Source: Actinomadura syzygii (GTDB taxonomy: Bacteria > Actinomycetota > Actinomycetes > Streptosporangiales > Streptosporangiaceae). Taken from it: a stretch of 64,000 nt of DNA. How positions within the stretch are numbered: position 1 is the stretch's first letter; every line of letters starts with the position of its first letter. This document shows positions 8,396 through 52,457 of the stretch, piece by piece. A program made the translations under genes and the position numbers. The stretch covers positions 558,001-622,000 of the forward strand of contig NZ_VSFF01000002.1 of NCBI RefSeq assembly GCF_008085905.1, read 5' to 3'. The notes beneath the pieces are model-generated. The model worked only from the letters and a program-made list of their open reading frames with translations. It did not search any database and was not told the origin of the DNA.

Positions 8396-9250
8396 CTACA
8401 GCCTCAGAACGCCACCGTATTCATAGAGGTTGGAGTCTTGAGCGCGGCCCTCGAACGGCTTGAGTGCAGGATCGATGGAGGGGAGCGGCGGCTGGTCGGG
8501 GTCGGGCCGCCATTCCTTGAGATTCACCAGTCCCGGGTCGAGAGGGGTGAGGCCGTCCAGCAGGTCCGCGAACTCCTTTGGTGTTCGGGACTGCCAGGGA
8601 ATACCGGCGGCGTCGATGGCGGAGCCGAATGCCAGGCCGCGGTCCGGGTCGTCGCAGACGACCTGGGACGCGGCGATGTAGCTGCCGGGCGCGGCATGGT
8701 CGATGACGGCGTGCAAGGTGTCGCGCGCCCCCGCCAGACCACCGCCAGGGGCGTCCTTGAGATGGTGCCCGACCGAGAGGTACAGCACCGCCACCGGCTG
8801 AGTGAAGTCGATCAGGCGAACCAGTTCCGGATGCTTCAGGACGGCCGGGTCGCGCATGTCGGCCTGGATGATGGTGGTGGACTCGTCGGCAGCTAGGAGG
8901 GCCCGGCCGTGCGCCAGCACGATGGGGTCGATGTCGGCGTACACGACCCGCGCGTCGGCGCTGAACCGCTTGGCGACCTGGTGCACGTTGTCGCCGGACG
9001 GCAGCCCGCAGCCGAAATCGATGAACTGGGAGATACCCGGTCCACCCCTTTCAGGGGGAGCGGCCAGGTAGCTCACGACCCGGTACAGAAACTGCCGGTT
9101 CTGGCGAGAGATGTCCAGGCACTCGGGGAAGTTCGGTAGCAGATTGAGCAGGAACTCCCGGTCGGCGGAAAAATTGTCCTTTAACCCCAACATCCACCCA
9201 TAGGCGCGCGCCGAGTGGGGGAGTGTTGTGTCTACCTCAATCGACGTCAT
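8396..9250 (-). CDS. SAM-dependent methyltransferase, DUF574 (SAV2177-like) family
   Basis: A 284-residue protein of a family abundant in filamentous actinomycetes. It starts MTSIEVDTTLPHSARAYGWMLGLKDNF, the family's usual opening (variants of '..HSARVYDYLLGGKDNF'). The SAM-binding loop is FIDFGCGLPSGDNVHQVA, followed by the acidic strand VVYADIDPIVLAHGRALL and ADMRDP. The start at 9250 matches family starts; a frame-open upstream extension to 9322 has no support. Substrate unknown. It diverges from a P-loop kinase gene. Confidence 0.82.
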   Translation of the reverse strand: MTSIEVDTTLPHSARAYGWMLGLKDNFSADREFLLNLLPNFPECLDISRQNRQFLYRVVSYLAAPPERGGPGISQFIDFGCGLPSGDNVHQVAKRFSADARVVYADIDPIVLAHGRALLAADESTTIIQADMRDPAVLKHPELVRLIDFTQPVAVLYLSVGHHLKDAPGGGLAGARDTLHAVIDHAAPGSYIAASQVVCDDPDRGLAFGSAIDAAGIPWQSRTPKEFADLLDGLTPLDPGLVNLKEWRPDPDQPPLPSIDPALKPFEGRAQDSNLYEYGGVLRL

Positions 9251-9436
9251 GCGTCCAGACCGACCCATCCAAGTGATCTTGTGAGCCACATGCGGGCTCC
9301 CCAGCCGAGCGATGTCCGCCACTACACACCACAGACCTTAGGGCCCAGCAGAATGCGACGGCTACGCAAAGGTACGTCTCTTCACCGCGCGCATGACTTC
9401 TGGACACCTTCACCTCCAACCCCGAGGACCGCGTGA

Positions 9437-10216
9437 GTGGCGCGCACGGACCGTCCAGGGCGCCACCCTGTGACGCTCGCCCCTGGAGACTGGATGATCT
9501 ACGCGCAGACGTCGCGGCCGCACCCGAGGAGACCTGTGACCAGAAACGACTTGTGGGACCCCTTCGGCACGCTTCGCCGGGCCCTCTGGATCAGCGGCGG
9601 GCAATGGGCGGGCAAGTCCACCGTCGCCCGGCTGCTCGCTCACCGTTACGGGCTGACCGCCTACCACTACGACCACCACGATGCCCGCGGCCACAACGAC
9701 CGCCGGATCGCCCGCCGCGTCAAGCTCGGCCAGTCACCCGCCGACCCGGACCCCGACCACACATGGGTGAACACAACCCCACAGGAAATGGCCGCTGGGA
9801 CCCTGGAAGGCTTCCCGGTCCGGTTCGAATGGGCCCTGGACGACCTGCGCTGCCTGGTCTCCGGGCGTCCCGTCATCGCCGAAGGGTGGGGGCTCCGCCC
9901 CGAACTGGTCGCTCCGATCATCGACTCGCCCCGGCGAATGGTCGTCATGGTGCCCACCCAGGAATTCCGCGAGCGCCAGCTCCGCGAACTCCCACGGACC
10001 GCCACCGTCAGCGGTGGCGTCAGCGACCCCGAACGGGCGCAACGCAACCGCCTGGAGCGGGACCGCCTCGTCGCCGACGATGCCGTCCGCTCCGCACAAC
10101 GCCTCGGCATCCGGGTGATCGAAGTCGACGGATCTCAGGACGCCCCCGCCATCGCCGCCATCGTCGCCGACCACTTCGGCCCCTACCTACCACCACCAGA
10201 CGACCACAACGCCTGA
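9437..10216 (+). CDS. P-loop nucleotide kinase-like protein
   Basis: A 259-residue protein with a Walker A motif SGGQWAGKSTVARLLA near residues 53-68, a YHYDHHDA segment like the lid/NMP-binding part of shikimate/uridine-type kinases, and late motifs RDRLVADDAV and VIEVDGSQDAPAIAAIVADHF typical of AAA_18/33-like small-molecule kinases. Substrate unknown. GTG start; an upstream in-frame alternative is not evident. It is a single gene, divergent from the methyltransferase. Confidence 0.65.
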   Translation: MARTDRPGRHPVTLAPGDWMIYAQTSRPHPRRPVTRNDLWDPFGTLRRALWISGGQWAGKSTVARLLAHRYGLTAYHYDHHDARGHNDRRIARRVKLGQSPADPDPDHTWVNTTPQEMAAGTLEGFPVRFEWALDDLRCLVSGRPVIAEGWGLRPELVAPIIDSPRRMVVMVPTQEFRERQLRELPRTATVSGGVSDPERAQRNRLERDRLVADDAVRSAQRLGIRVIEVDGSQDAPAIAAIVADHFGPYLPPPDDHNA

Positions 10217-10249
10217 TCGGCACCATTTGGGGGCGCCGCCGTGGAGTGC

Positions 10250-10879
10250 TCAGGAGGTCAGCCCGGCGCGGTGGGTGAGGATCACCAGTTGGATGCGGTC
10301 GCGGGCCTTGAGTTTGCTGAGCAGGGCGGCGACATGGGCGCGGACGGTGCCCGGGGCGATGCCGAGTTCCGCGGCGATCTCGGCGTTCGACAGGCCGTCC
10401 GCCACCAGGAGGAGGACGTCGCGTTCCCGCGCGGTGAGGTGGGGGAGGGAGCCCGGATCGGGCGGGGACGGCCGGGCGGTGAACGCGCCGATGAGGCGTC
10501 GGGTGATGGACGGGGACAGCAGCGCGTCCCCGCGGTCGACGATCCTGATCGCGTCGAGGAGGTCGCGAGGCGGGGCGTCCTTGAGCAGGAAGCCGCTGGC
10601 GCCCCCGCGAAGGGCCGCGTAGACGTACTGGTCCAGGTCGAAGGTGGTGAGGATCAGGACGCGGGAGCCGGTGATCCGCCGGGTGGCCTCCAGGCCGTCC
10701 ATGCCGGGCATCCGGATGTCCATGAGCACGACGTCGGGGCGCAGTTCGTCCGCCAACGCGACGGCCCCGGCCCCGTCGGCCGCTTCGCCGACGACCTGGA
10801 GATCGGGCGCGGTGCCGATGATCCCGGCCAGGCCCGCCCGCACGAGCGCCTGGTCGTCGGCCACGAGGACCCTGATCAT
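10250..10879 (-). CDS. NarL-type response regulator of a two-component system
   Basis: A 209-residue response regulator. Receiver: acidic pair in VLVADDQALVRAGL, phospho-acceptor Asp in VVLMDIRMPGMDG, conserved Thr in VLILTTFD and Lys in GFLLKDAPP. LuxR-type HTH: LTARERDVLLLVADGLSNAE followed by IAAELGIAPGTVRAHVAALLSKL. It overlaps the histidine kinase stop by 4 bp (ATGA), so they are translated together. By family precedent it should control the divergent ABC exporter at 12225-13702. Confidence 0.93.
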   Translation of the reverse strand: MIRVLVADDQALVRAGLAGIIGTAPDLQVVGEAADGAGAVALADELRPDVVLMDIRMPGMDGLEATRRITGSRVLILTTFDLDQYVYAALRGGASGFLLKDAPPRDLLDAIRIVDRGDALLSPSITRRLIGAFTARPSPPDPGSLPHLTARERDVLLLVADGLSNAEIAAELGIAPGTVRAHVAALLSKLKARDRIQLVILTHRAGLTS

Positions 10880-12060
10880 GCGGTCAGCGGGAGGACGGCC
10901 CTGACACGGAAGCCGCCCTCGGGGAGCGGGGCCGCGTCGAGCGTGCCGCCGTGGACGAGCGCGCGTTCCCGCATGCCCAGCAGGCCGTGTCCGGGACGGT
11001 ATCCGCGCCCCGCCCCGCCGCCGTGGTCGGTGACCTGGACGGTGAGGGCGTCGGGCGTGCGCCGGATCAGGAGGTGAGCGTGATCGATCCCGGCGTGTCT
11101 GACCACGTTGGTGAGGGCCTCCTGCGCGATCCGGTAGGCCGACAGGTCGAGGGCCGGCGGCAGACCGGCGAGCGGGCCGTCCAGTTCGAGCGCGGTTCGG
11201 ACACCGGCCTGGGCCGTCCGGTCGACCAGTCGTCGGAGCTCGCCCAGGCCGGGGGCGGGTTCGAGATGGACGTCGGCGCCCGTGCCGGTGGGACCGTTAC
11301 CCGTGTCGACGGGACGCAGGACGTGCAGGAGCGCGCGTAGCTCCGTGAGCGTCTGCCGTCCCGTCGTCTCGATCGTGGTCAGCGCGGCCTGGGCCTTGTC
11401 GGGCTGGTCGAGGGCGATCAGCGCGCCGTACCCGGCCTGGACGGTGATGACGCTCATGCCGTGCGCGAGCAGGTCGTGCATCTCCCGGGCGATCCGGAGC
11501 CGTTCGTCGGTCGCCGCCTGCTCCACGCGGTTCCGAGCCTGGCGGCGCTGGATGCCCAGCGCGTGCCCGGCCGTCCAGATCACCAGGTAGAGCACGGTGA
11601 ACGCGACCGCGCCGCCCCGGTGCCGGAAGTCGGGCAACGCCGTCGTCCAGGCGCAGGCCACCGCCAAGGCGAGGGCGGCGTAGGCGTACGGCCCCGCCGC
11701 CAGCGGCCACAGGACGTAGCCGAGCGCCGTCAACCCGGCCACCATCGAGGGCGGGTCGGCCGCGCCGACCAGGCCGAGCCCGGTCAGCAGCAGTCCGAGC
11801 GCGAGCAGCGGACGGCGGCGTCCGAGGGCGATCGGCAGCGAGAACAGCACGACCCCGGCGGCGAGCGCGAGCGCCCTGAGCACACCCTGGTCGGCGTGGT
11901 TGCCCATCATCAGCGTCGCGGGCACCGCGAACCCGACCGCCGCCACCCGGTCTCGCACGTTCGGTGCGAGGACGGCCCTGACGGCGGCCTTCACCCGATC
12001 CGCCGAGCGCGCGGCCGAGGTCGTCTCCTGCCCCTGCGCGATCCCCGGACGATCGTTCAT
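10876..12060 (-). CDS. Sensor histidine kinase, HisKA_3 family
   Basis: A 394-residue membrane kinase. The N-terminal half has about five hydrophobic helices. The phospho-acceptor His is in RIAREMHDLLAHGMSVITVQ, and the ATP-binding domain shows IAQEALTNVVRHAG (N box) and VTDHGGGAGRGYRPGHGLLGMRERA (G boxes). This is the DesK-like, NarL-partnered class. The ATG at 12060 is used; another ATG 36 bp upstream sits directly against its GGAGGG, too close to work well. It forms one operon with the response regulator. Confidence 0.92.
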   Translation of the reverse strand: MNDRPGIAQGQETTSAARSADRVKAAVRAVLAPNVRDRVAAVGFAVPATLMMGNHADQGVLRALALAAGVVLFSLPIALGRRRPLLALGLLLTGLGLVGAADPPSMVAGLTALGYVLWPLAAGPYAYAALALAVACAWTTALPDFRHRGGAVAFTVLYLVIWTAGHALGIQRRQARNRVEQAATDERLRIAREMHDLLAHGMSVITVQAGYGALIALDQPDKAQAALTTIETTGRQTLTELRALLHVLRPVDTGNGPTGTGADVHLEPAPGLGELRRLVDRTAQAGVRTALELDGPLAGLPPALDLSAYRIAQEALTNVVRHAGIDHAHLLIRRTPDALTVQVTDHGGGAGRGYRPGHGLLGMRERALVHGGTLDAAPLPEGGFRVRAVLPLTA

Positions 12061-44589: not shown

Positions 44590-45702
44590 ATGACCCTTGA
44601 CGCAGAGTCTCCGGCGGGGCCGCCGCCCGAGGTCCCGGGCATCGACGTGCCCCGGCTCGCGGCCTGGCTGGCCCGCGAGCTGCCCGGCTCCGGCCGCGTC
44701 GGGGCGATCGAGTTGATCGCCGGCGGACGCTCCAACCTCACCTACGGGATCACCCTGGACGGCGGCCGCCGCGTCGTGCTGCGCAGGCCGCCGCTCGGGC
44801 ACGTCCAGCCGACGGCCCACGACATGGGCCGCGAGCACCGGGTGCTGACCGCGCTCGGCGGCGGGACGGGCGTGCCCGTGCCGCGCACGCTGGCGTTCTG
44901 CGCCGACCCGTCCGTGCTCGGCGCGCCCTTCTACCTCATGGACTTCGTCGACGGGCGCGTCCTGCGCACCCGCGAGGACGCCGCCGACCTCGCCCCGGGG
45001 CAGGCGCGCGGCCTCAGCGAGGCGCTGGCCGCCGCGCTCGCCGCGATCCACACCGTCGACGTGGCGGCCGTCGGCCTGGACGACTTCGGGCGCCCGGCCG
45101 GCTACATGGAGCGCCAGCTCAAGCGGTGGGGCAAGCAGTGGGACGGGTCGCGGGAGGCGATCCGCGCGACCGGCGCCGTCCGCGACCTGCCCGAGTACGA
45201 CCGGCTCGCCGCGCGGCTCGCCGAGCGGCTCCCGGCGGACGCCGCCGCGCGGGGGGAGCGGGCGCGGCTCGTCCACGGCGACTTCCGGCTCGACAACGCG
45301 CTCGCCGGGCTGGAGCCGCGGCCGGAGATCGCGGCCGTGGTCGACTGGGAGATGTCGACGCTCGGCGACCCGCTGTCCGACCTCGGGCTGACGCTCGTCT
45401 ACTGGGCCGAGGCGGCGGACGCCGAGGAACTGCCCGTCGGCGCCACGATCACCGCCGCGCCCGGCTTCTTCACCCGCCGCGAGTTCGCCGACCGGTACGC
45501 CGCGCTGACCGGCTTCGACCTCGCCGACCTCGACTTCTACGTGGCGTTCGCGTGCTTCAAGCTCGCCGTCATCCTGGAGGGCATCCACGCCCGCTACCTG
45601 CAGAAGGCGACGGTCGGGCAGGGGTTCGACCAGATCGGGGACGCCGTCCCGCTCCTGCTGGGGCGCGCGCACCGCATCCTCGACGCCCGCTCACCCTGGT
45701 GA
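44590..45702 (+). CDS. Aminoglycoside-phosphotransferase-fold kinase (ACAD10/FadE-associated type)
   Basis: 370 residues of the APH/choline-kinase fold: GGRSNLTYGITLDGGRRVVLRRPP (nucleotide loop and Lys/Arg strand), catalytic LVHGDFRLDN, and metal-binding VVDWEMSTLGDPLSDLG. The acidic start MTLDAESPAG... and the size fit the family found next to acyl-CoA dehydrogenases (ACAD10-like). Here it stands alone. It probably phosphorylates a 4-hydroxyacyl-CoA or similar; not an antibiotic-resistance gene on this evidence. Confidence 0.85.
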   Translation: MTLDAESPAGPPPEVPGIDVPRLAAWLARELPGSGRVGAIELIAGGRSNLTYGITLDGGRRVVLRRPPLGHVQPTAHDMGREHRVLTALGGGTGVPVPRTLAFCADPSVLGAPFYLMDFVDGRVLRTREDAADLAPGQARGLSEALAAALAAIHTVDVAAVGLDDFGRPAGYMERQLKRWGKQWDGSREAIRATGAVRDLPEYDRLAARLAERLPADAAARGERARLVHGDFRLDNALAGLEPRPEIAAVVDWEMSTLGDPLSDLGLTLVYWAEAADAEELPVGATITAAPGFFTRREFADRYAALTGFDLADLDFYVAFACFKLAVILEGIHARYLQKATVGQGFDQIGDAVPLLLGRAHRILDARSPW

Positions 45703-45760: not shown

Positions 45761-47224
45761 TCAGCACCAGTAGGACACCGACGCGGTGCCGCCCGGCGAG
45801 ACGGTCACGCTGCCGGACTGGCGTCCCAGGCAGAGGCCGCTGTCGCGCGACACCCGCACGCCGCCGACCTGCCCCGCTTCGAGACGGCCCGCGCCGCCCG
45901 CCGCGACGGGACCGGACGTCCCGGTCACGCGCCAGTTCACCGGCCCGCCGACGGCGGTGATCCGGATGACGCAGGAGTCCTGGCCGTTCCCCATGCTGCA
46001 CCCCTGCACCGACAGGCGTCCGGCCCGCGGCGGTTCCGGCCGGTCCGGCGGGGGCGGCGTCTTCGAGGGAGTCTTCGACGGGGTCTTGGACGGCGACGGC
46101 GACTTCGACGGCGACTTCGACGCGGTCGGGGACGGCGACGTCACCGACGGGTCGAGGCCGCTCGGCGACGGGTCGGGGTCGCTCGACTCGCCGCCCGGGG
46201 AGCCGCTGCCGCCGGTGACCGGACCGCCCGCCGCCGCGCCCGTGTCGTCGCCGCCGAGCCAGGACATCGCGCCGACCAGCAGCACCACCGCGCCGACGGC
46301 CACCGCGACGGCGGCGATCAGCGGGCCGCGGCGGCGCGGCGACCGGTCGCGGGACCGCGCGGGCGAGGGCTCGTAGGGGAGCGGCCAGCCGTACTCGTCG
46401 AACGGCTCCGTCCAGGCGGCGATGGCGCGGCGGTTGGCGCTGCGGTCCTCGGCGGTGGCGGCGGTGAGGACGTCCAGCCGCAGGTCGCCGGGGATCGCCG
46501 CGATCGGCAGCACCGACAGCAGCCGGTCGGTCTGCAGCGGCGGCGTCTCCCGCTCGCCGCACACCGGGCAGCTCGCGACGTGCCGGACGAGCGACGTCGC
46601 CGCCTGCGGCGACAGCGGCCACGACTCCGTCAGCGCCGAGACGCTCGGGCATTCCTTCCAGTGGTTCTGCGCGATGAGGGCGGCGTGCAGCGCGGCGCCG
46701 AGGTCCTCGCGGGACTTCTCGACGAGCGCGAGCGTCTCCTCCAGCGGCATCCCGAAGATGCCGGAGAGGTCGACCTCGTCCAGCTCGTGCCGCACCGACA
46801 GGTCGATCGCCTCGCGCTGGCGGCCGTTCAGCGCGGCGAGCGCGCTGTGCGCGAGCAGCCGGCGCTCCTCGCGGCGGGCGAGCTGCTCGTCGGTCAGGTC
46901 GTCGTCGGCCTCCGGCGCCTCCTGGCCGGTGTGCCGGTTCGGGCTGTCGCGGCGCCGCATGCACTCCTTGCGGGCGATCGCGTACAGCCAGCCGCGCAGC
47001 CGGTCCGGCTCGGTGAGCCGGTCGATGTGCTCGCGGGCCTGGATGACGATGTTGCGCAGGGCCCCCGCGGCCTCGACGCGGTCACGGAGCAGGCCGTGGC
47101 AGTAGTCGTAGAGGAACGGCGCGTACGTGTCGTACACCTCGGTCAGGGCGATGACGTCCCCGGCTCGCAGCGAGTTCGCCAGCCTGAGGTCGTCTTCCTG
47201 CCCGGGCCCTGGCTCACCGGCCAC
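45761..47224 (-). CDS. Membrane-tethered ECF sigma factor fused to anti-sigma-like and extracellular domains (copy 2)
   Basis: 487 residues. Cytosolic sigma-2: LTEVYDTYAPFLYDYCHGLL then EPDRLRGWLYAIARKECMRR; sigma-4: ALAALNGRQREAIDLSVRHELDEVDLSGIFG. A zinc anti-sigma-like motif follows, HVASCPVC (H-x3-C-x2-C), near residue 216. One membrane helix (LIAAVAVAVGAVVLLVGAM) near 310, then a Ser/Thr/Pro/Lys linker (SKSPSKSPSPSKTPSKT) and an outer domain of about 100 residues with four Cys (GCSMGNGQDSCVIRI... VSYWC). Sigma, inhibitor and sensor therefore sit in one chain. GTG start with GGGAGG. The upstream paralogue has the same architecture. Confidence 0.82.
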   Translation of the reverse strand: MAGEPGPGQEDDLRLANSLRAGDVIALTEVYDTYAPFLYDYCHGLLRDRVEAAGALRNIVIQAREHIDRLTEPDRLRGWLYAIARKECMRRRDSPNRHTGQEAPEADDDLTDEQLARREERRLLAHSALAALNGRQREAIDLSVRHELDEVDLSGIFGMPLEETLALVEKSREDLGAALHAALIAQNHWKECPSVSALTESWPLSPQAATSLVRHVASCPVCGERETPPLQTDRLLSVLPIAAIPGDLRLDVLTAATAEDRSANRRAIAAWTEPFDEYGWPLPYEPSPARSRDRSPRRRGPLIAAVAVAVGAVVLLVGAMSWLGGDDTGAAAGGPVTGGSGSPGGESSDPDPSPSGLDPSVTSPSPTASKSPSKSPSPSKTPSKTPSKTPPPPDRPEPPRAGRLSVQGCSMGNGQDSCVIRITAVGGPVNWRVTGTSGPVAAGGAGRLEAGQVGGVRVSRDSGLCLGRQSGSVTVSPGGTASVSYWC

Positions 47225-47438
47225 GGGAATCCTCCCAGTCGAGTTCGGTGTTCTTGATCGTGCCCCCGGCGAGCCCCGACGTCCGTCGGCCGACTCTGGT
47301 TGCCAGATCTTGCCACCAAGTCTCTGAGATTTCTCCCTTATGAGCGGATTTCAGTGACGGATTAGGTACGCCCCGTGGCCGTCTCGCCTAGTGAATCGCC
47401 CCTTGGACCACAAAAATGTGATCTGAGCCACGTTGACG
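47225..47438. other. Spacer between the two sigma-fusion genes
   Basis: 214 bp, no coding frame supported. It is long enough for a separate promoter for the second copy; I see no clear -35/-10 pair. Confidence 0.35.
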
Positions 47439-48932
47439 TCAGTTGCCCCCGCCGCCCCCGCCGCCTCCGCAGTCCCAGGAGACCTGCCGGCTCTCGCCGC
47501 CGGGGGAGAAAGTGACCGTGGTGGACCCCGACGGGTCGTCGCAGGAGCCCAGCGTGAACGTGGCCGCGCCGCCCTGTCCCGGGGCGAGCGTGCTGCCGCC
47601 GCCCCCGCTGACCGGGCCCCCGCCCGCGACGGACCAGGTCACCTGGCCGCCGACCGCGCGCACCGGGATCGAGCAGCTGTTCCCGGCGCCGTTGATGGTG
47701 CAGCCGCCGCCGACCTGCAACGTCCCCGTCCTGGGCTTTGTGCGGGTCGGAGTCGGGGTCGGAGTGCGGGACGGACGGCGCGTCCGCGTCGGGGTCGGCG
47801 TGGGGGACGTCGTGGTGGGCGTCGGGGTCGCGGTCTCGGTGGGCGTCGGGGTCTCCGACGGCTGCTCGCTCTCGCTCGGCTCGGCCGAGTCCGGCGCGAC
47901 CGAGGCCGGCCCGGTCGGCTTGTCCTGGGCGGCCGGCCCGCTGGACGAGCCCGGCATGATGAAGAACGCCCCGGCGACGATCACGACCACGGCGGCGACG
48001 GCGGCGAGCACCGGCCAGAGCGCGCGGGGCGCGCCGCGCCGGCCTCCGCCGGACCCCTGCTCCGCGCGGTCGACGGTCACCGGCCAGCCCCAGGCGTCGA
48101 ACGGCTCGGCCCGGTGCGCGATCTCGGCCAGGTCGGGGGCGAGGGACGGGTCGGTCGCCGTCGCCATGACGAGCCCGCGCAGGTCGGTCGGCATCATCGC
48201 GACGGGCAGCACCTGGAGGAGCCGGGCCGCGGAGATCGTCCGGTCGCGGCGCGGGATGCAGGTCGGGCACGTCTCGATGTGGTGGACGAGTTTGCGCACG
48301 ACCGGCGGCGGCAGCGGGTTCGGGCCGTCGTCGGCGAGGGCGGCGACGCTCGGGCAGTCGCGCCCGTGCCGGGCGAGGTGGGCGGCGGCGAGCGCGTCGT
48401 CGAGGCGGGCGCGCGCGGCGCCGGTCACGTCGGCGGCCTCCTGCGGGTCCAGGCCGAGGACGCCGCCGACCTCCACCGGGTCCAGGCCGTGCCGGAGGTT
48501 GAGGTCGAGCGCCTCGCGCTCGCGTCCGCGCAGCGCGGCGAGCGCGCTGTGGATGAGGCGGCGGGCCTCCTCGCGGTTCGCGACGTCGACGTCCTTGAGG
48601 AAGACGTCCTCGACCTCGGGGGCCTCGTGCCGCTCGGCCGGACGGGCGGGATCGCGCAGCCGCCGCGTGCACTCGTTGCGCACGAGCGCGTACAGCCAGC
48701 CGCGGAACCGGTCCGGCTCGCGGACGACGGACACGTGCGCGTACGCGGCGATGAGCGCGTCGTGCAGGGCGCCCGCCGCCTGCTCCTGGTCGCGGAGCAG
48801 CGCGTGGCAGTAGTCGTACAGGCGGGCCGCGTAGCGATCCATGACCTGGATGAGGGCGCTGGGATCACCAGCCGCCAGCGACCGGGCGAGACGTTCGTCG
48901 TCAGCGCGGTCGAGATTGGGCCATCCGGACAC
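47439..48932 (-). CDS. Membrane-tethered ECF sigma factor fused to anti-sigma-like and extracellular domains (copy 1)
   Basis: 497 residues, a full-length paralogue of the next gene. Sigma-2: IQVMDRYAARLYDYCHALLR, EPDRFRGWLYALVRNECTRR; sigma-4: SALAALRGREREALDLNLRH. Zinc-type motif HHIETCPTC. Membrane helix LAAVAAVVVIVAGAFFIM, then a Thr/Pro repeat linker (TPTPTETATPTPTTTSPTPT) and an outer domain (GCTINGAGNSCSIPV... VTFSPGGESRQVSWDC) that ends in a glycine run. The outer domain fits an Ig/BACON-like fold. Probable signal: an extracellular ligand or wall stress, releasing sigma by proteolysis or by motion of the zinc motif. GTG start with GGGAGG. Confidence 0.82.
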   Translation of the reverse strand: MSGWPNLDRADDERLARSLAAGDPSALIQVMDRYAARLYDYCHALLRDQEQAAGALHDALIAAYAHVSVVREPDRFRGWLYALVRNECTRRLRDPARPAERHEAPEVEDVFLKDVDVANREEARRLIHSALAALRGREREALDLNLRHGLDPVEVGGVLGLDPQEAADVTGAARARLDDALAAAHLARHGRDCPSVAALADDGPNPLPPPVVRKLVHHIETCPTCIPRRDRTISAARLLQVLPVAMMPTDLRGLVMATATDPSLAPDLAEIAHRAEPFDAWGWPVTVDRAEQGSGGGRRGAPRALWPVLAAVAAVVVIVAGAFFIMPGSSSGPAAQDKPTGPASVAPDSAEPSESEQPSETPTPTETATPTPTTTSPTPTPTRTRRPSRTPTPTPTRTKPRTGTLQVGGGCTINGAGNSCSIPVRAVGGQVTWSVAGGGPVSGGGGSTLAPGQGGAATFTLGSCDDPSGSTTVTFSPGGESRQVSWDCGGGGGGGGN

Positions 48933-49327
48933 AGGGTCCTCCCGCGGGCTGGGGGATGAGAAAGTCCGCGTCCGCGATGTCAGGGACGGGACTGAAGATC
49001 AATTGGGGAGCGCTGCGCTCTCCCTGGGTCCCGGCCTCCCGGCCGGCGGCCCCTGAGCCGCCTCGTCAGGTGCGGCTCCGCCCCCCGTCACGGTTCGGGG
49101 AGGGAGAGCGGGTCGGAGGCCCGACGGCCCCGCTCCCCGTCGGGCCTCCACATGAATTGACGATCGACGGAGGCGCCAGGTTGACACGAATCGCCGGAAA
49201 AAACCGGGAACTACCAGGCGCATTCACATGATCACCGAGTGCGGAGTGTTGTGCAATTCTCACCAGATCCTCGCCGGCCCGGCCGCGGCGAGCTGACCTG
49301 CGCGACGCTGCCGAGGGTGAGGGACGC
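48933..49327. other. Intergenic stretch
   Basis: No supported gene. It contains the promoter side of the sigma-fusion gene and the terminator listed next; a long frame on either strand here has no start site or family resemblance. Confidence 0.4.
49115..49149 (-). terminator. Terminator downstream of the VWA gene
   Basis: A 13-bp perfect stem (GGAGGCCCGACGG and complement) with a 9-nt loop, no U-run. It lies 180 bp beyond the VWA gene. Confidence 0.6.
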
Positions 49328-51772
49328 TCACTCGATGCGCCTGGAGAGCATCTTCAGGAAGATCTTCTTGATCTCGTCCGGGGTCATCGCGATCTCCACG
49401 TTGCCGTACGTGACGTTCGCGATCTGCTGGAGCTCGTTGCGGTCCACGCCCTTGCCGAACCCGATCATGTTGACCTGGATGGGCTTGTTCGGGTCCTGCA
49501 TGCCCTTGAGCTGCTTCAGCGTGTCCTGGAGCGACGGGCCGCCCGGGTCGTCGTTCTTGCCGTCCGTGAGCAGCAGGATCGAGTTGCCGAACTCCGGCTT
49601 GTAGGTCTTGTTCATCGTCTTGTAGGCGGCGAGCAGCGTCCGGTAGAGGCCGGTGTCGCCGCTCGGCTTCGGCTGCATCTGGTTGAGCGCCGACAGGAAC
49701 AGGCCGCGCCGCGTGGTCGAGCCGACCCGCTCGCCGAGCGGCCCGATCGAGATCGTCTCCTTGTACGGGGTGGAGCCGTTCATGTCGGTCGAGAACAGCC
49801 ACTGGCCGAGCTCGGTGTCGTTCGACATCATGCTCAGCCCGCTCTGCGACACCTGCGCGATCGCCTGGAGGCGGTTCAGGCTCGGCCCGACCTGCTCCGC
49901 CATCGAGCCGGACACGTCGATCAGCGTCAGCATGCGCAGCCCGAGCGTCAGCTTCGCCCACGCCTGCATGGTCTTCGCGACGGCCTCGGTCTGCGGCGCG
50001 GGGAGCTGGCGCGGCCGGGCCGGGCTGACGCCCGCCTTCTGGTCGAACCCGCCGGGGGCCTTGCCGTCCGGCGTGCGGAAGCCCAGCTCCAGGACGTCGC
50101 CGCGGGTGGCCTCCGTGCTCATCGCCTTCTCCAGCAGGCGCGCGCCCTCCGCCTTGGCGTCGTCCTTGGCGGTGATGGTGAACGGGTAGTCCATCGACAG
50201 CGTGCCCTCGAGCGGGTACAGCGCGACCGCGGGCTCGTCCGGCTTCGACTGGTTGTACTGCCAGAGCGCCTGCTCCGACGACAGCGAGATCGGCTGCTTG
50301 CCCGCCCGCCCCTTGCGGAACTGCCCGAACTCGGCCGCCACGTTCGGGACGGTGCTCTCCCGCACCGTCCGCACGATGCCGGTGAAGATCGTGTCGCGGT
50401 TCGGGTCGTTCGCCAGCAGCGTGCTGGTGATCATCAGCGAGCCCATGCCCGCCGCGTTCTTCGTCGGGTCCGGCACGACCAGCCGCACCGTGCCCGCCGG
50501 GATCATCTGGTTCTTGGTCACCGCGCCGCCCGCGACGCCGCCCGCCGCCTTGAGCAGGTTGTCCCAGGACGGGGCGGCCGTGATGCCCTGCTGCTTGAGC
50601 TGCTGCGCGAGCGACTGCGGCAGCCCGACCACGATCGGGCTCGTCGCGACGGACGTCTTCGTGGGAGTGATGCCGCCCCTGCCGATGCCGCCGCCGCTCG
50701 CGGACTGGGCGAGGGCCGTCCACAGCGACGAGTCGGGGATCCACACGTCCGGCCGCTCGTTGGCCGCGTCCGTCACCCCCTGCCCGGACAGCAGCGTCGA
50801 CACCGTCGCGGGCTCGGTCTTCTTCACGGTGGCCCTGACGCACTTGCCGCCGGACTTGTGCTTGGCGTCGTTGAACCGTCCGGCCGCCTTCTCCACGACC
50901 GGCGCGATGTCCGGCGCGGCCGCGACCGTGAGGTTCATCGCGCCGTCGCCGGAGCAGCCGCCGCTCTCGGCGAAGGCGTACACGCCGACGCCGAGCAGGA
51001 GCGCGAGGCCCGCCGCTCCCGCCATCGGCCCGATCAGCGCGGTCGCGCTGCGTTTGCGCCTGCGCCTGCCGTACTCGTAACCGCCGGACCCGCCGCCGTA
51101 GGAGCCGGACCCGCCCGACCCTCCGTAGCCGCCGGAGTCACCGGACCCGCCGGAGTCGCCGCCGCCCGTCCCGCCGCCGAAGTAGCCGGACGGGCCTCCG
51201 TCCGAACTGCGGATCGAGTCGTACTCGCTGTACCCGGTCCCGGCGAGCGGCGAGCGGGTGCTCTCGGACGGCGCGCCCGGCTCCCCGTACCCGCCCGGCT
51301 CTCCGTACCCGCCCGGCGTGCCGTACTCGCTCGGCGGGTTGTACTCGCTGGGTTGGGTGTACTCGCTCGGTGGACCGTACTCGCCGGGTGGGGGGTACTC
51401 GCTCGGTGGGCCGTACGGTCCGCTTTCAGACGCGCCCGCGGCCGTGCCGTAGTCGCCGGACCCGTAAATGGGCTGCTCGCCCGTTCCGTAGACGGGCTGC
51501 TCGCCGGACTGGCGCGGCGTGAACCACTGGGGCGTCTCGCCGGACGCCCCCGGCGGCGGGCTCTGCGGGCTTTGCGAACTCTGCGGGCCCGGGGGCGGGG
51601 TGGCTTGCGCTTGCGCGGGCGGCTGGATGGGCGGCTGGGCGAGCTGTCCGCTGTCGCGTGTTCCGAACCAGTCCGAGGAGCCGTCGTTGGCCGGCCCGAA
51701 GACAGGGGTGGACGGGTCGTACCCGCCGCCTCCCGTCCCGTCGGGGAAGTCATTGCGATGACGTCCGCTCAT
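49328..51772 (-). CDS. Membrane-anchored solute-binding/VWA-domain protein
   Basis: 814 residues. The N-terminal ~240 residues are cytosolic and low-complexity: Gln/Pro-rich, then tandem EYGPPSEY/GGYGEPGG-type repeats and a Gly/Ser-rich stretch. Basic RRRRKR precedes the membrane helix (LIGPMAGAAGLALLLGVGVYAF, ~247-267). Outside are a type-II periplasmic-binding-like domain (NLTVAAAPDIAPVVEKAAGRF, VWIPDSSLW) and a VWA domain with the MIDAS motif DVSGSM near 615, plus a TDGKND segment. Such proteins are seen in actinobacterial envelopes; their ligand is unknown. Start M 51772 has GAGGGCAGG upstream. Confidence 0.78.
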   Translation of the reverse strand: MSGRHRNDFPDGTGGGGYDPSTPVFGPANDGSSDWFGTRDSGQLAQPPIQPPAQAQATPPPGPQSSQSPQSPPPGASGETPQWFTPRQSGEQPVYGTGEQPIYGSGDYGTAAGASESGPYGPPSEYPPPGEYGPPSEYTQPSEYNPPSEYGTPGGYGEPGGYGEPGAPSESTRSPLAGTGYSEYDSIRSSDGGPSGYFGGGTGGGDSGGSGDSGGYGGSGGSGSYGGGSGGYEYGRRRRKRSATALIGPMAGAAGLALLLGVGVYAFAESGGCSGDGAMNLTVAAAPDIAPVVEKAAGRFNDAKHKSGGKCVRATVKKTEPATVSTLLSGQGVTDAANERPDVWIPDSSLWTALAQSASGGGIGRGGITPTKTSVATSPIVVGLPQSLAQQLKQQGITAAPSWDNLLKAAGGVAGGAVTKNQMIPAGTVRLVVPDPTKNAAGMGSLMITSTLLANDPNRDTIFTGIVRTVRESTVPNVAAEFGQFRKGRAGKQPISLSSEQALWQYNQSKPDEPAVALYPLEGTLSMDYPFTITAKDDAKAEGARLLEKAMSTEATRGDVLELGFRTPDGKAPGGFDQKAGVSPARPRQLPAPQTEAVAKTMQAWAKLTLGLRMLTLIDVSGSMAEQVGPSLNRLQAIAQVSQSGLSMMSNDTELGQWLFSTDMNGSTPYKETISIGPLGERVGSTTRRGLFLSALNQMQPKPSGDTGLYRTLLAAYKTMNKTYKPEFGNSILLLTDGKNDDPGGPSLQDTLKQLKGMQDPNKPIQVNMIGFGKGVDRNELQQIANVTYGNVEIAMTPDEIKKIFLKMLSRRIE

Positions 51773-52457
51773 GGCCTGCCCTCGATTCACCAGAAACCCG
51801 CCGATGTTCCCCGGCACTGTAGTAGTACGAACCAGAGGTTACAAAGAACTCAAAAGTGATAATGACGCAGGTCATCAGCGCCTGTCTCGACGTTCCCGTT
51901 GCTGGTCAGAGCCGTGACGGTCCGCGAGCACGGGGGTGCGGACGGTGGCGTGCCGCGCGGAACGGTCACCGCCCGTCCGGAGGTGATCGCAACGGTCCAC
52001 ATATATAAGGCGTGCGGCGGCGCGCCGATACCGTCCGTGTGCGATCACATGGGACGAGTGACGGTCGGTTCGGCGGCGACCATGGAAATGCCATGACGTG
52101 AAAATGGCCATTCTCGGCCGTGCGGCGCGTGGTGTCGGCCGTTCTGGTAATGGCGTTCCATTCCCTTCCGTGACCTTCTGGATCTCGTTCTGGAACGTGC
52201 CCGCCACGCCATTCGCTAGGGTGCGGCCGGGGCGCCGATCCGCTGTGCCGCGGCCACGTCCGGGACGGTCGGCCCGTCGTCGGGAGTCACCTCCGAGCGG
52301 ATGCATCAGGAGCCTCATCCATCACATTCGACGGAATACAAGACTCTTTCCCGCAGATTCCGACAACGGACGGCGGTGAAATTCGGGCGTGCGAGTGGGG
52401 CCGCTGTTGCGGGTGGTCGCGGCGAGGTCGGCGGACGCGGGTTGGCAGACTTGGGGG
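51773..52457. other. Long divergent intergenic region
   Basis: 685 bp without a supported gene. It includes an AT-rich patch CACATATATAAGG near 51998-52010 that could be a -10 element, and several imperfect repeats of GGCCATT/AATGGC-type. It separates the VWA gene from the methyltransferase gene. Confidence 0.4.

What the first reader, a model, noticed from the sequence alone, without database searches (positions are those of the whole stretch)
45761..48932. Tandem sigma/anti-sigma/transmembrane/sensor fusion proteins
Seen: two paralogues, each with sigma-2, sigma-4, an HxxxCxxC zinc motif, one membrane helix, a Ser/Thr/Pro linker and a Cys-containing outer domain. Known: HxxxCxxC is the zinc-anti-sigma signature, normally on a separate protein; some ECF groups carry C-terminal membrane extensions. 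Inference: one-chain signal transducers sensing something outside, with two diverged sensor domains in one genome.
Basis: partly seen in the sequence, partly recalled or inferred. Interest (0 to 1): 0.75.

Follow-up and report, generated by a model that had tools for sequence, protein, structure and literature searches.

The report
Twin membrane-tethered sigma factor sensors
Two neighbouring genes of an actinobacterium (probably Actinomadura) each encode one long protein joining a sigma-factor-like part, a conserved motif of the zinc-binding type, a predicted membrane helix and a predicted outer beta-sandwich domain; both genes carry the same conserved promoter-like sequence, so they are likely self-regulating envelope sensors, and the second has lost the residues that sigma factors are known to use to grip RNA polymerase, so it may have become a partner or brake for the first.

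Summary
In detail: two tandem paralogues (A, 47439-48932; B, 45761-47224, minus strand) each carry sigma2, a sigma4 fold, C...HxxxCxxC, one membrane helix, a Ser/Thr/Pro linker and a four-Cys outer domain. The four zinc-motif residues are invariant in 116 A-set and 56 B-set rows. The architecture is a known kind (ECF48/52/53, SCO4117, IutY) and widespread. I think A is a membrane-tethered, probably protease-released sigma factor driving both genes, and B a remodelled partner.

The parts
47439..48932 (-). Gene A, 497 aa fused sigma/zinc-motif/TM/outer-domain protein (GTG start)
   Evidence: ORF; orthologues; start and ribosome-binding site conserved in the upstream alignment
45761..47224 (-). 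Gene B, 487 aa paralogue (GTG start)
   Evidence: ORF; orthologues
48633..48911 (-). A sigma2 (residues 8-100)
   Evidence: Pfam PF04542; model; fold match
48372..48593 (-). A sigma4 fold (residues 114-187); recognition helix 162-177 lacks the usual basic residues
   Evidence: no Pfam sigma4 hit
48258..48356 (-). A zinc-type anti-sigma motif C193..H218xxxC222xxC225
   Evidence: 116 of 116 rows
47958..48020 (-). A membrane helix (305-325), Arg-rich on the sigma side
   Evidence: sequence; helix in model
47733..47954 (-). A Ser/Thr/Pro linker (327-400), mostly pLDDT about 40-50
47466..47732 (-). A outer domain (401-489), PapD/ASH/BACON-like beta-sandwich, Cys 411/420/464/488
46931..47203 (-). 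B sigma2 (8-98); region 2.2 reads AAGALRN where ordinary ECFs read about AEDLVQE
46670..46891 (-). B sigma4 fold (112-185)
46559..46651 (-). B zinc-type motif C192..H215xxxC219xxC222
   Evidence: 56 of 56 rows
46259..46321 (-). B membrane helix (302-322)
46028..46255 (-). B Ser/Thr/Pro linker (324-399)
45764..46027 (-). B outer domain (400-487), Cys 409/418/465/487
49159..49186 (-). Promoter-like site of A: TGTCAACC-N16-CGTC
   Evidence: AACC-N16-CGTC in 60 of 60 A-type upstream regions
49115..49149 (-). Hairpin (13 bp stem, 9 nt loop) just after the A site; start of the A leader and/or terminator of the upstream gene
   Evidence: 5' arm in 59 of the 69 regions; 9-12 nt after CGTC in 59 of the 60 regions where both were found
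47278..47305 (-). Promoter-like site of B: TGGCAACC-N16-CGTC
   Evidence: AACC-N16-CGTC exact in 24 of 40 regions (30 of 40 with 7 or more of 8 bases); 5 of the 13 other B-type genes
47298..47317 (-). Imperfect dyad GGTGGCAAGATCTGGCAACC overlapping the B -35; operator-like
   Evidence: 38 of 40 B regions, control mean 0
47418..47431 (-). Crp-type site (GTGN8CAC) just after the stop of A
   Evidence: 28 of 40 B regions, control mean 4.4; stricter GTGAN6TCAC 17 of 40, control 0.14 (the window itself has only the looser form)
49328..51817 (-). Conserved upstream neighbour: protein with SBP_bac_11 and VWA domains
44590..45702 (+). Conserved convergent neighbour, APH-family phosphotransferase

Best explanation
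Gene A encodes a sigma-factor-like protein fused to its own zinc-type anti-sigma motif, a predicted membrane helix and a predicted outer PapD/BACON-like domain, and it likely acts as a membrane-tethered sigma factor that, once cut loose, would switch on both itself and gene B through the promoter-like site they share. Steps and status: the domain order and the conserved zinc-type motif are shown; the closed sigma2/sigma4 arrangement, resembling sigma factors bound by their anti-sigma, is predicted (AF2). The shared conserved site AACC-N16-CGTC in front of both genes is shown; that A reads it is inferred from the usual autoregulation of ECFs and from its absence upstream of the other sigma genes checked. 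Release by site-1 and site-2 proteolysis after the outer domain senses an envelope change or partner protein is inferred from IutY and ECF52; two HExxH site-2-protease-like genes are in the genome. B shares the site and layout, but its sigma2 has replaced the usual RNA-polymerase-contact residues and kept the replacements, so I expect it to be a remodelled partner (second sensor and/or brake on A) rather than an independent sigma factor.
Confidence: 0.5

Rival explanations
1. Both A and B are ordinary ECF52/53-like tethered sigma factors, each released by its own signal; the odd contact residues are group-specific variation without functional loss.
For: Same layout, same type of upstream site and a retained sigma fold in both. 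Distant relatives with a canonical region 2.2 also lack basic residues in the sigma4 helix (K/R in 2 of 120), so a changed helix 4.2 is normal for this group. SCO4117 (ECF52) affects transcription and its sigma domain alone can modulate development.
Against: B has none of the three usual region 2.2 residues in 56 of 56 and its replacements sit on a long stem. 24 of the 52 listed B orthologues P0121-P0172 carry no precomputed Pfam sigma2; three of those rescanned score 19.0-23.3 bits, just below the cut-off of 24.
Confidence: 0.27
2. Neither protein directs RNA polymerase; both are sigma mimics that bind anti-sigma domains in trans (as PhyR binds NepR), and the shared site is read by a different ECF.
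Against: The PhyR matches are weak and sigma/anti-sigma complexes rank higher. A keeps the acid of region 2.2 in 111 of 116 and a well-conserved region after it. The 30 other sigma genes looked at lack the site.
Confidence: 0.13
3. The outer domain is a structural, wall-contact or adhesion module and the zinc motif is the sensor (cytoplasmic redox or zinc), the membrane helix serving only as an anchor.
For: Cytoplasmic zinc-type anti-sigmas are often redox sensors (passages); the outer fold is a common sandwich.
Against: The outer domain is conserved (mean pairwise identity 0.48 in A, 0.61 in B; Cys at least 94%). The same paper argues for a structural zinc role in membrane anti-sigmas.
Confidence: 0.1

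Closest known systems
ECF52, SCO4117 of Streptomyces coelicolor (PMC5826349: abstract and sections 15, 20, 21 seen)
   Same: One chain: ECF sigma, zinc finger, membrane helix, proline-rich linker, outer domain; actinobacterial; autoregulation proposed.
   Different: Its outer domain is a carbohydrate-binding module (smart00776), its zinc finger is found by pfam13490, its gene lies next to atrA in most species, its proposed motif is CSGYN-17-SRHA, and it is the only ECF52 of S. coelicolor. Ours: PapD/BACON-like outer domain, no Pfam zinc-finger hit, VWA neighbour, AACC-N16-CGTC, two tandem genes.
ECF53 and ECF48 (review PMC8999054, passages)
   Same: Actinobacterial ECFs with C-terminal zinc-finger and one or two membrane helices, expected to be activated by proteolysis.
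   Different: No reference sequence or group model was available here, so group membership could not be tested.
IutY of Pseudomonas putida, ECF243 (PMC5411451 abstract; review passage)
   Same: Sigma and anti-sigma joined in one membrane protein; processing by two proteases is shown experimentally.
   Different: Answers a siderophore; the abstract places its anti-sigma domain in the periplasm; no tandem paralogue mentioned there.
Widespread sigma + BACON_2 proteins (2521 profile matches among 7990 scored candidates; 108 of the 120 listed carry both PF19190 and PF04542)
   Same: Same order of domains; outer domains homologous to ours (hhalign about 97%).
   Different: Those aligned are about 27-30% identical to A; region 2.2 still canonical (D in 120, Q in 98, D in 120 of 120).
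PhyR (sigma-like domain that titrates NepR; recalled, and search listing)
   Same: A sigma-like fold without sigma function is the precedent for reading B as a mimic.
   Different: Soluble response regulator of alphaproteobacteria (recalled); weak similarity only.

Membership tests
ECF sigma factor (superfamily) | Sigma2 and sigma4, no sigma3 | tested here: met
   TIGR02937 cut-off 42.9: A 58.7 and B 43.0 bits in the genome search, A 55.4 and B 39.7 in the protein scan, so B is borderline; folds
ECF sigma factor (superfamily) | Usual core-binding residues of region 2.2 (D..QE; role recalled) | tested here: not met
   A: mostly G, H, D; B: G, R, mostly N; ordinary ECFs of the same genome D/E 22, Q 18, E/D 19 of 22
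ECF sigma factor (superfamily) | Basic residues in the -35 recognition helix (role recalled) | tested here: not met
   K/R in five columns: A 1 of 116, B 6 of 56, ordinary ECFs 18 of 22
ECF sigma factor (superfamily) | Directs core RNA polymerase | not testable with these tools
   needs in-vitro transcription
Zinc-type class I anti-sigma domain | HxxxCxxC plus upstream ligand | tested here: met
   116 of 116 and 56 of 56 rows
Zinc-type class I anti-sigma domain | Contacts both sigma2 and sigma4 | tested here: inconclusive
   Sigma parts align to anti-sigma-bound sigma factors; contacts of the zinc segment were not measured, coordinates not available
ECF52 | Carbohydrate-binding module (smart00776) as outer domain | tested here: not met
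   No such Pfam match; the outer model matches PapD/ASH-like sandwiches. SMART itself was not searched
ECF52 | Gene downstream of atrA | tested here: not met
   Neighbours are VWA/SBP and APH
ECF53 | Score against the group model of the ECF classification | not testable with these tools
   model not held
BACON_2 / PapD-like outer domain | Homology of the outer domain | tested here: met
   hhalign 96.9% (A) and 97.0% (B) to the outer domains of the relatives; no direct Pfam hit in A or B
IutY-type (ECF243) | FecR-type cell-surface-signalling anti-sigma domain (label recalled) | tested here: not met
   No such Pfam match in A or B

The most novel reading that the evidence does not exclude
B is a membrane-bound sigma mimic: after duplication its sigma half gave up RNA polymerase and was re-tuned to compete for the zinc anti-sigma segment of A (or to lend A its own), making the pair a two-sensor, partner-switching relay in the membrane, placed under a promoter that A itself would drive.
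Probability: 0.25. Interest if true: 0.78.

Novelty: new variant of a known kind. Interest (0 to 1): 0.5.

Why it matters
Sigma factors fused to their own anti-sigma are one-protein signal relays that are easy to test and engineer; the review passages read here name few studied cases (SCO4117, IutY). This pair offers a conserved promoter-like site as a ready reporter, a defined outer domain, and a natural experiment: one copy keeps part and the other keeps none of the usual polymerase-contact residues. If B is a sigma mimic, it would show how a sigma factor turns into a regulator in place.

Tried and rejected
Rejected or led nowhere. (1) Regulon: only 7 exact TGKCAACC-N16-CGTC in the genome; the five besides A and B lie inside or antisense to ORFs or in doubtful positions (L118 is about 130 bp before a secreted-protein ORF); over 61 genomes the pattern beats its reversed form anyway (144 against 45). 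(2) Rfam: three matches at E up to 1, all far below gathering scores. (3) Motif count in the window equals chance. (4) Carbohydrate-binding outer domain: not supported. (5) 'The hairpin is only a terminator of the VWA gene': left open; its fixed distance from the A site speaks for a role in the A leader. (6) Distribution over the phylum: 72 of 100 genomes match the profile at E up to 1e-20, but most listed rows cover only the sigma part, so I draw no count of fused genes from it. (7) Literature: searches. One search (sigma factor + BACON domain) listed 4 papers, by title and abstract on Bacteroidota; (Actinomadura + ECF sigma factor) listed 3, none on this by title. I found no paper on a PapD/BACON-type fused sigma factor in these searches; the main ECF classification papers were not seen.

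Rows dropped and sets. Conservation sets keep proteins over 450 aa: 115 of the 120 listed (of 302 matches) plus the window; 55 of 57 chosen B proteins plus the window. The A set also holds Actinoallomurus and metagenome proteins that the tree puts outside the Actinomadura A group, some of them nearer B (93/97). Upstream set: 68 of 73 loci plus the window; five dropped because the match starts late (L076, L084, L096, L098, L100). Of the 69 rows 60 are A-type and 9 nearer B (L082, L095, L099, L102, L104, L105, L107, L110, L111); the six without the site are all among these 9. The B set of 40 is the window plus 39 of 52 loci with a B-type gene; the other 13 were scanned (5 exact). Ordinary ECFs: 22 of the 30 sigma loci fetched (8 are not ECF), themselves only the best-scoring ones. 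Residue 54: one of 44 A+B loci (L097) could not be read. Contig pairs in the tree were matched by equal contig length, an inference.

Full report
What is there. Two minus-strand genes, A (48932..47439, 497 aa) then B (47224..45761, 487 aa), lie 214 bases apart. They are 47% identical over the first 286 residues. Each has sigma2 (Pfam), a sigma4 fold seen only in the model, C...HxxxCxxC, one hydrophobic helix, a low-confidence Ser/Thr/Pro stretch and a beta-sandwich with four Cys. The nearest proteins are from Actinomadura (93% for A, 98% for B), so the host is probably that genus.

Neighbourhood and history. Of 73 loci from named genomes, 65 hold an A-type gene and 63 of these have the VWA/SBP gene upstream; 44 hold A and B, 36 the whole set VWA, A, B, APH (several contigs are cut); in 8 loci APH follows A directly and B is absent. 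In a tree of the first 290 residues B and B-like metagenome sequences form one group (100/96), and the Actinomadura B group sits on a long stem (0.41, 100/100); the rows I called A are not one clean group, Actinoallomurus proteins falling nearer B (93/97). The pair therefore seems older than Actinomadura. The same genome has two further fusion genes, L003 (592 aa) and L004 (564 aa).

Shared site. Alignment of upstream regions showed AACC and CGTC exactly 16 bases apart before both genes. Exact matches: 63 of 69 and 24 of 40 regions, Markov controls 0.7 and 0.5; sorted by gene type 60 of 60 A-type and, with the 13 left-out genes, 29 of 53 B-type. AACC-N16-CGTC is absent upstream of 30 other sigma genes and the two other fusion genes. 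The longer form TGKCAACC-N16-CGTC occurs 7 times in the 9.7-Mb genome against 1 for the reversed pattern, but that excess is general in the family (144 against 45 in 61 genomes). AAC-type -35 and CGTC-type -10 elements are typical of ECF promoters (recalled). That A reads this site is an inference. The A site is followed after 9-12 bases by a strong conserved hairpin (-31.3 kcal/mol for 60 bases folded from just after the site); B instead has a Crp-type site and an operator-like dyad overlapping its -35. So the two genes share one input and differ in others.

The sigma parts are unusual. Against 22 ordinary ECFs of the same genome (D/E 22, Q 18, E/D 19 at the three region 2.2 positions), A has D in 10 of 116, Q in none, acid in 111; B has none of the three in 56 of 56, with G and R fixed and N in 49. 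In the sigma4 recognition helix, K/R in five columns occur in 18 of 22 ordinary ECFs, 1 of 116 A, 6 of 56 B and 2 of 120 distant relatives (14 of 28 in an in-between set), so that change is spread over the group, while the loss of region 2.2 is stepwise and complete only in B. That these positions contact core polymerase and the -35 element is recalled, not tested. B's sigma2 is nevertheless the most conserved part of the protein (mean pairwise identity 0.83), so B is not simply decaying. In A, residue 54 is Gly in 33 of 43 readable loci that also hold B and in 0 of 8 loci without B, a hint of coupled change that shared ancestry could also explain.

What is known. A review describes ECF48, ECF52 and ECF53 as actinobacterial sigma factors with fused zinc-finger and membrane extensions (passages), so the kind is known. 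ECF52 membership fails on its outer domain and on gene neighbourhood; ECF53 could not be tested. The finding is a new variant of a known kind; its interest lies in the paired design, the conserved shared site and the remodelled B.

Noticed in passing
window 49115-49149: Near-invariant 13-bp-stem hairpin at a fixed distance after the A site; leader element or terminator of the VWA gene.
   Followed up: partly
window 47418-47431: Crp-type site just downstream of the A stop, found before B in 28 of 40 regions.
   Followed up: partly
window 47298-47317: Imperfect dyad overlapping the B -35 element, in 38 of 40 regions; probably an operator of an unknown regulator.
   Followed up: partly
L085 (Actinomadura sp. 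DC4), L089, L092, L093 (Actinoallomurus), about 8450-11500: One or two further fused sigma genes follow A; in L085, L089 and L093 an AMP-ligase-like ORF lies between: a local expansion of the family.
   Followed up: partly
L004 1417-3111 with L019 (G000:C23:9747-10208): A third fusion gene lies directly downstream of a small sigma-factor gene.
   Followed up: no
L079, L087 (P0195, P0197): B orthologues of A. rupiterrae and A. oligospora are 741 and 640 aa; P0195 aligned shows a long insert between the zinc segment and the membrane helix.
   Followed up: no
window 49328-51817: VWA/solute-binding-type protein with a Gly/Pro-rich N-terminus, upstream of A in 63 of 65 loci; a candidate partner of the outer domains.
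   Followed up: no
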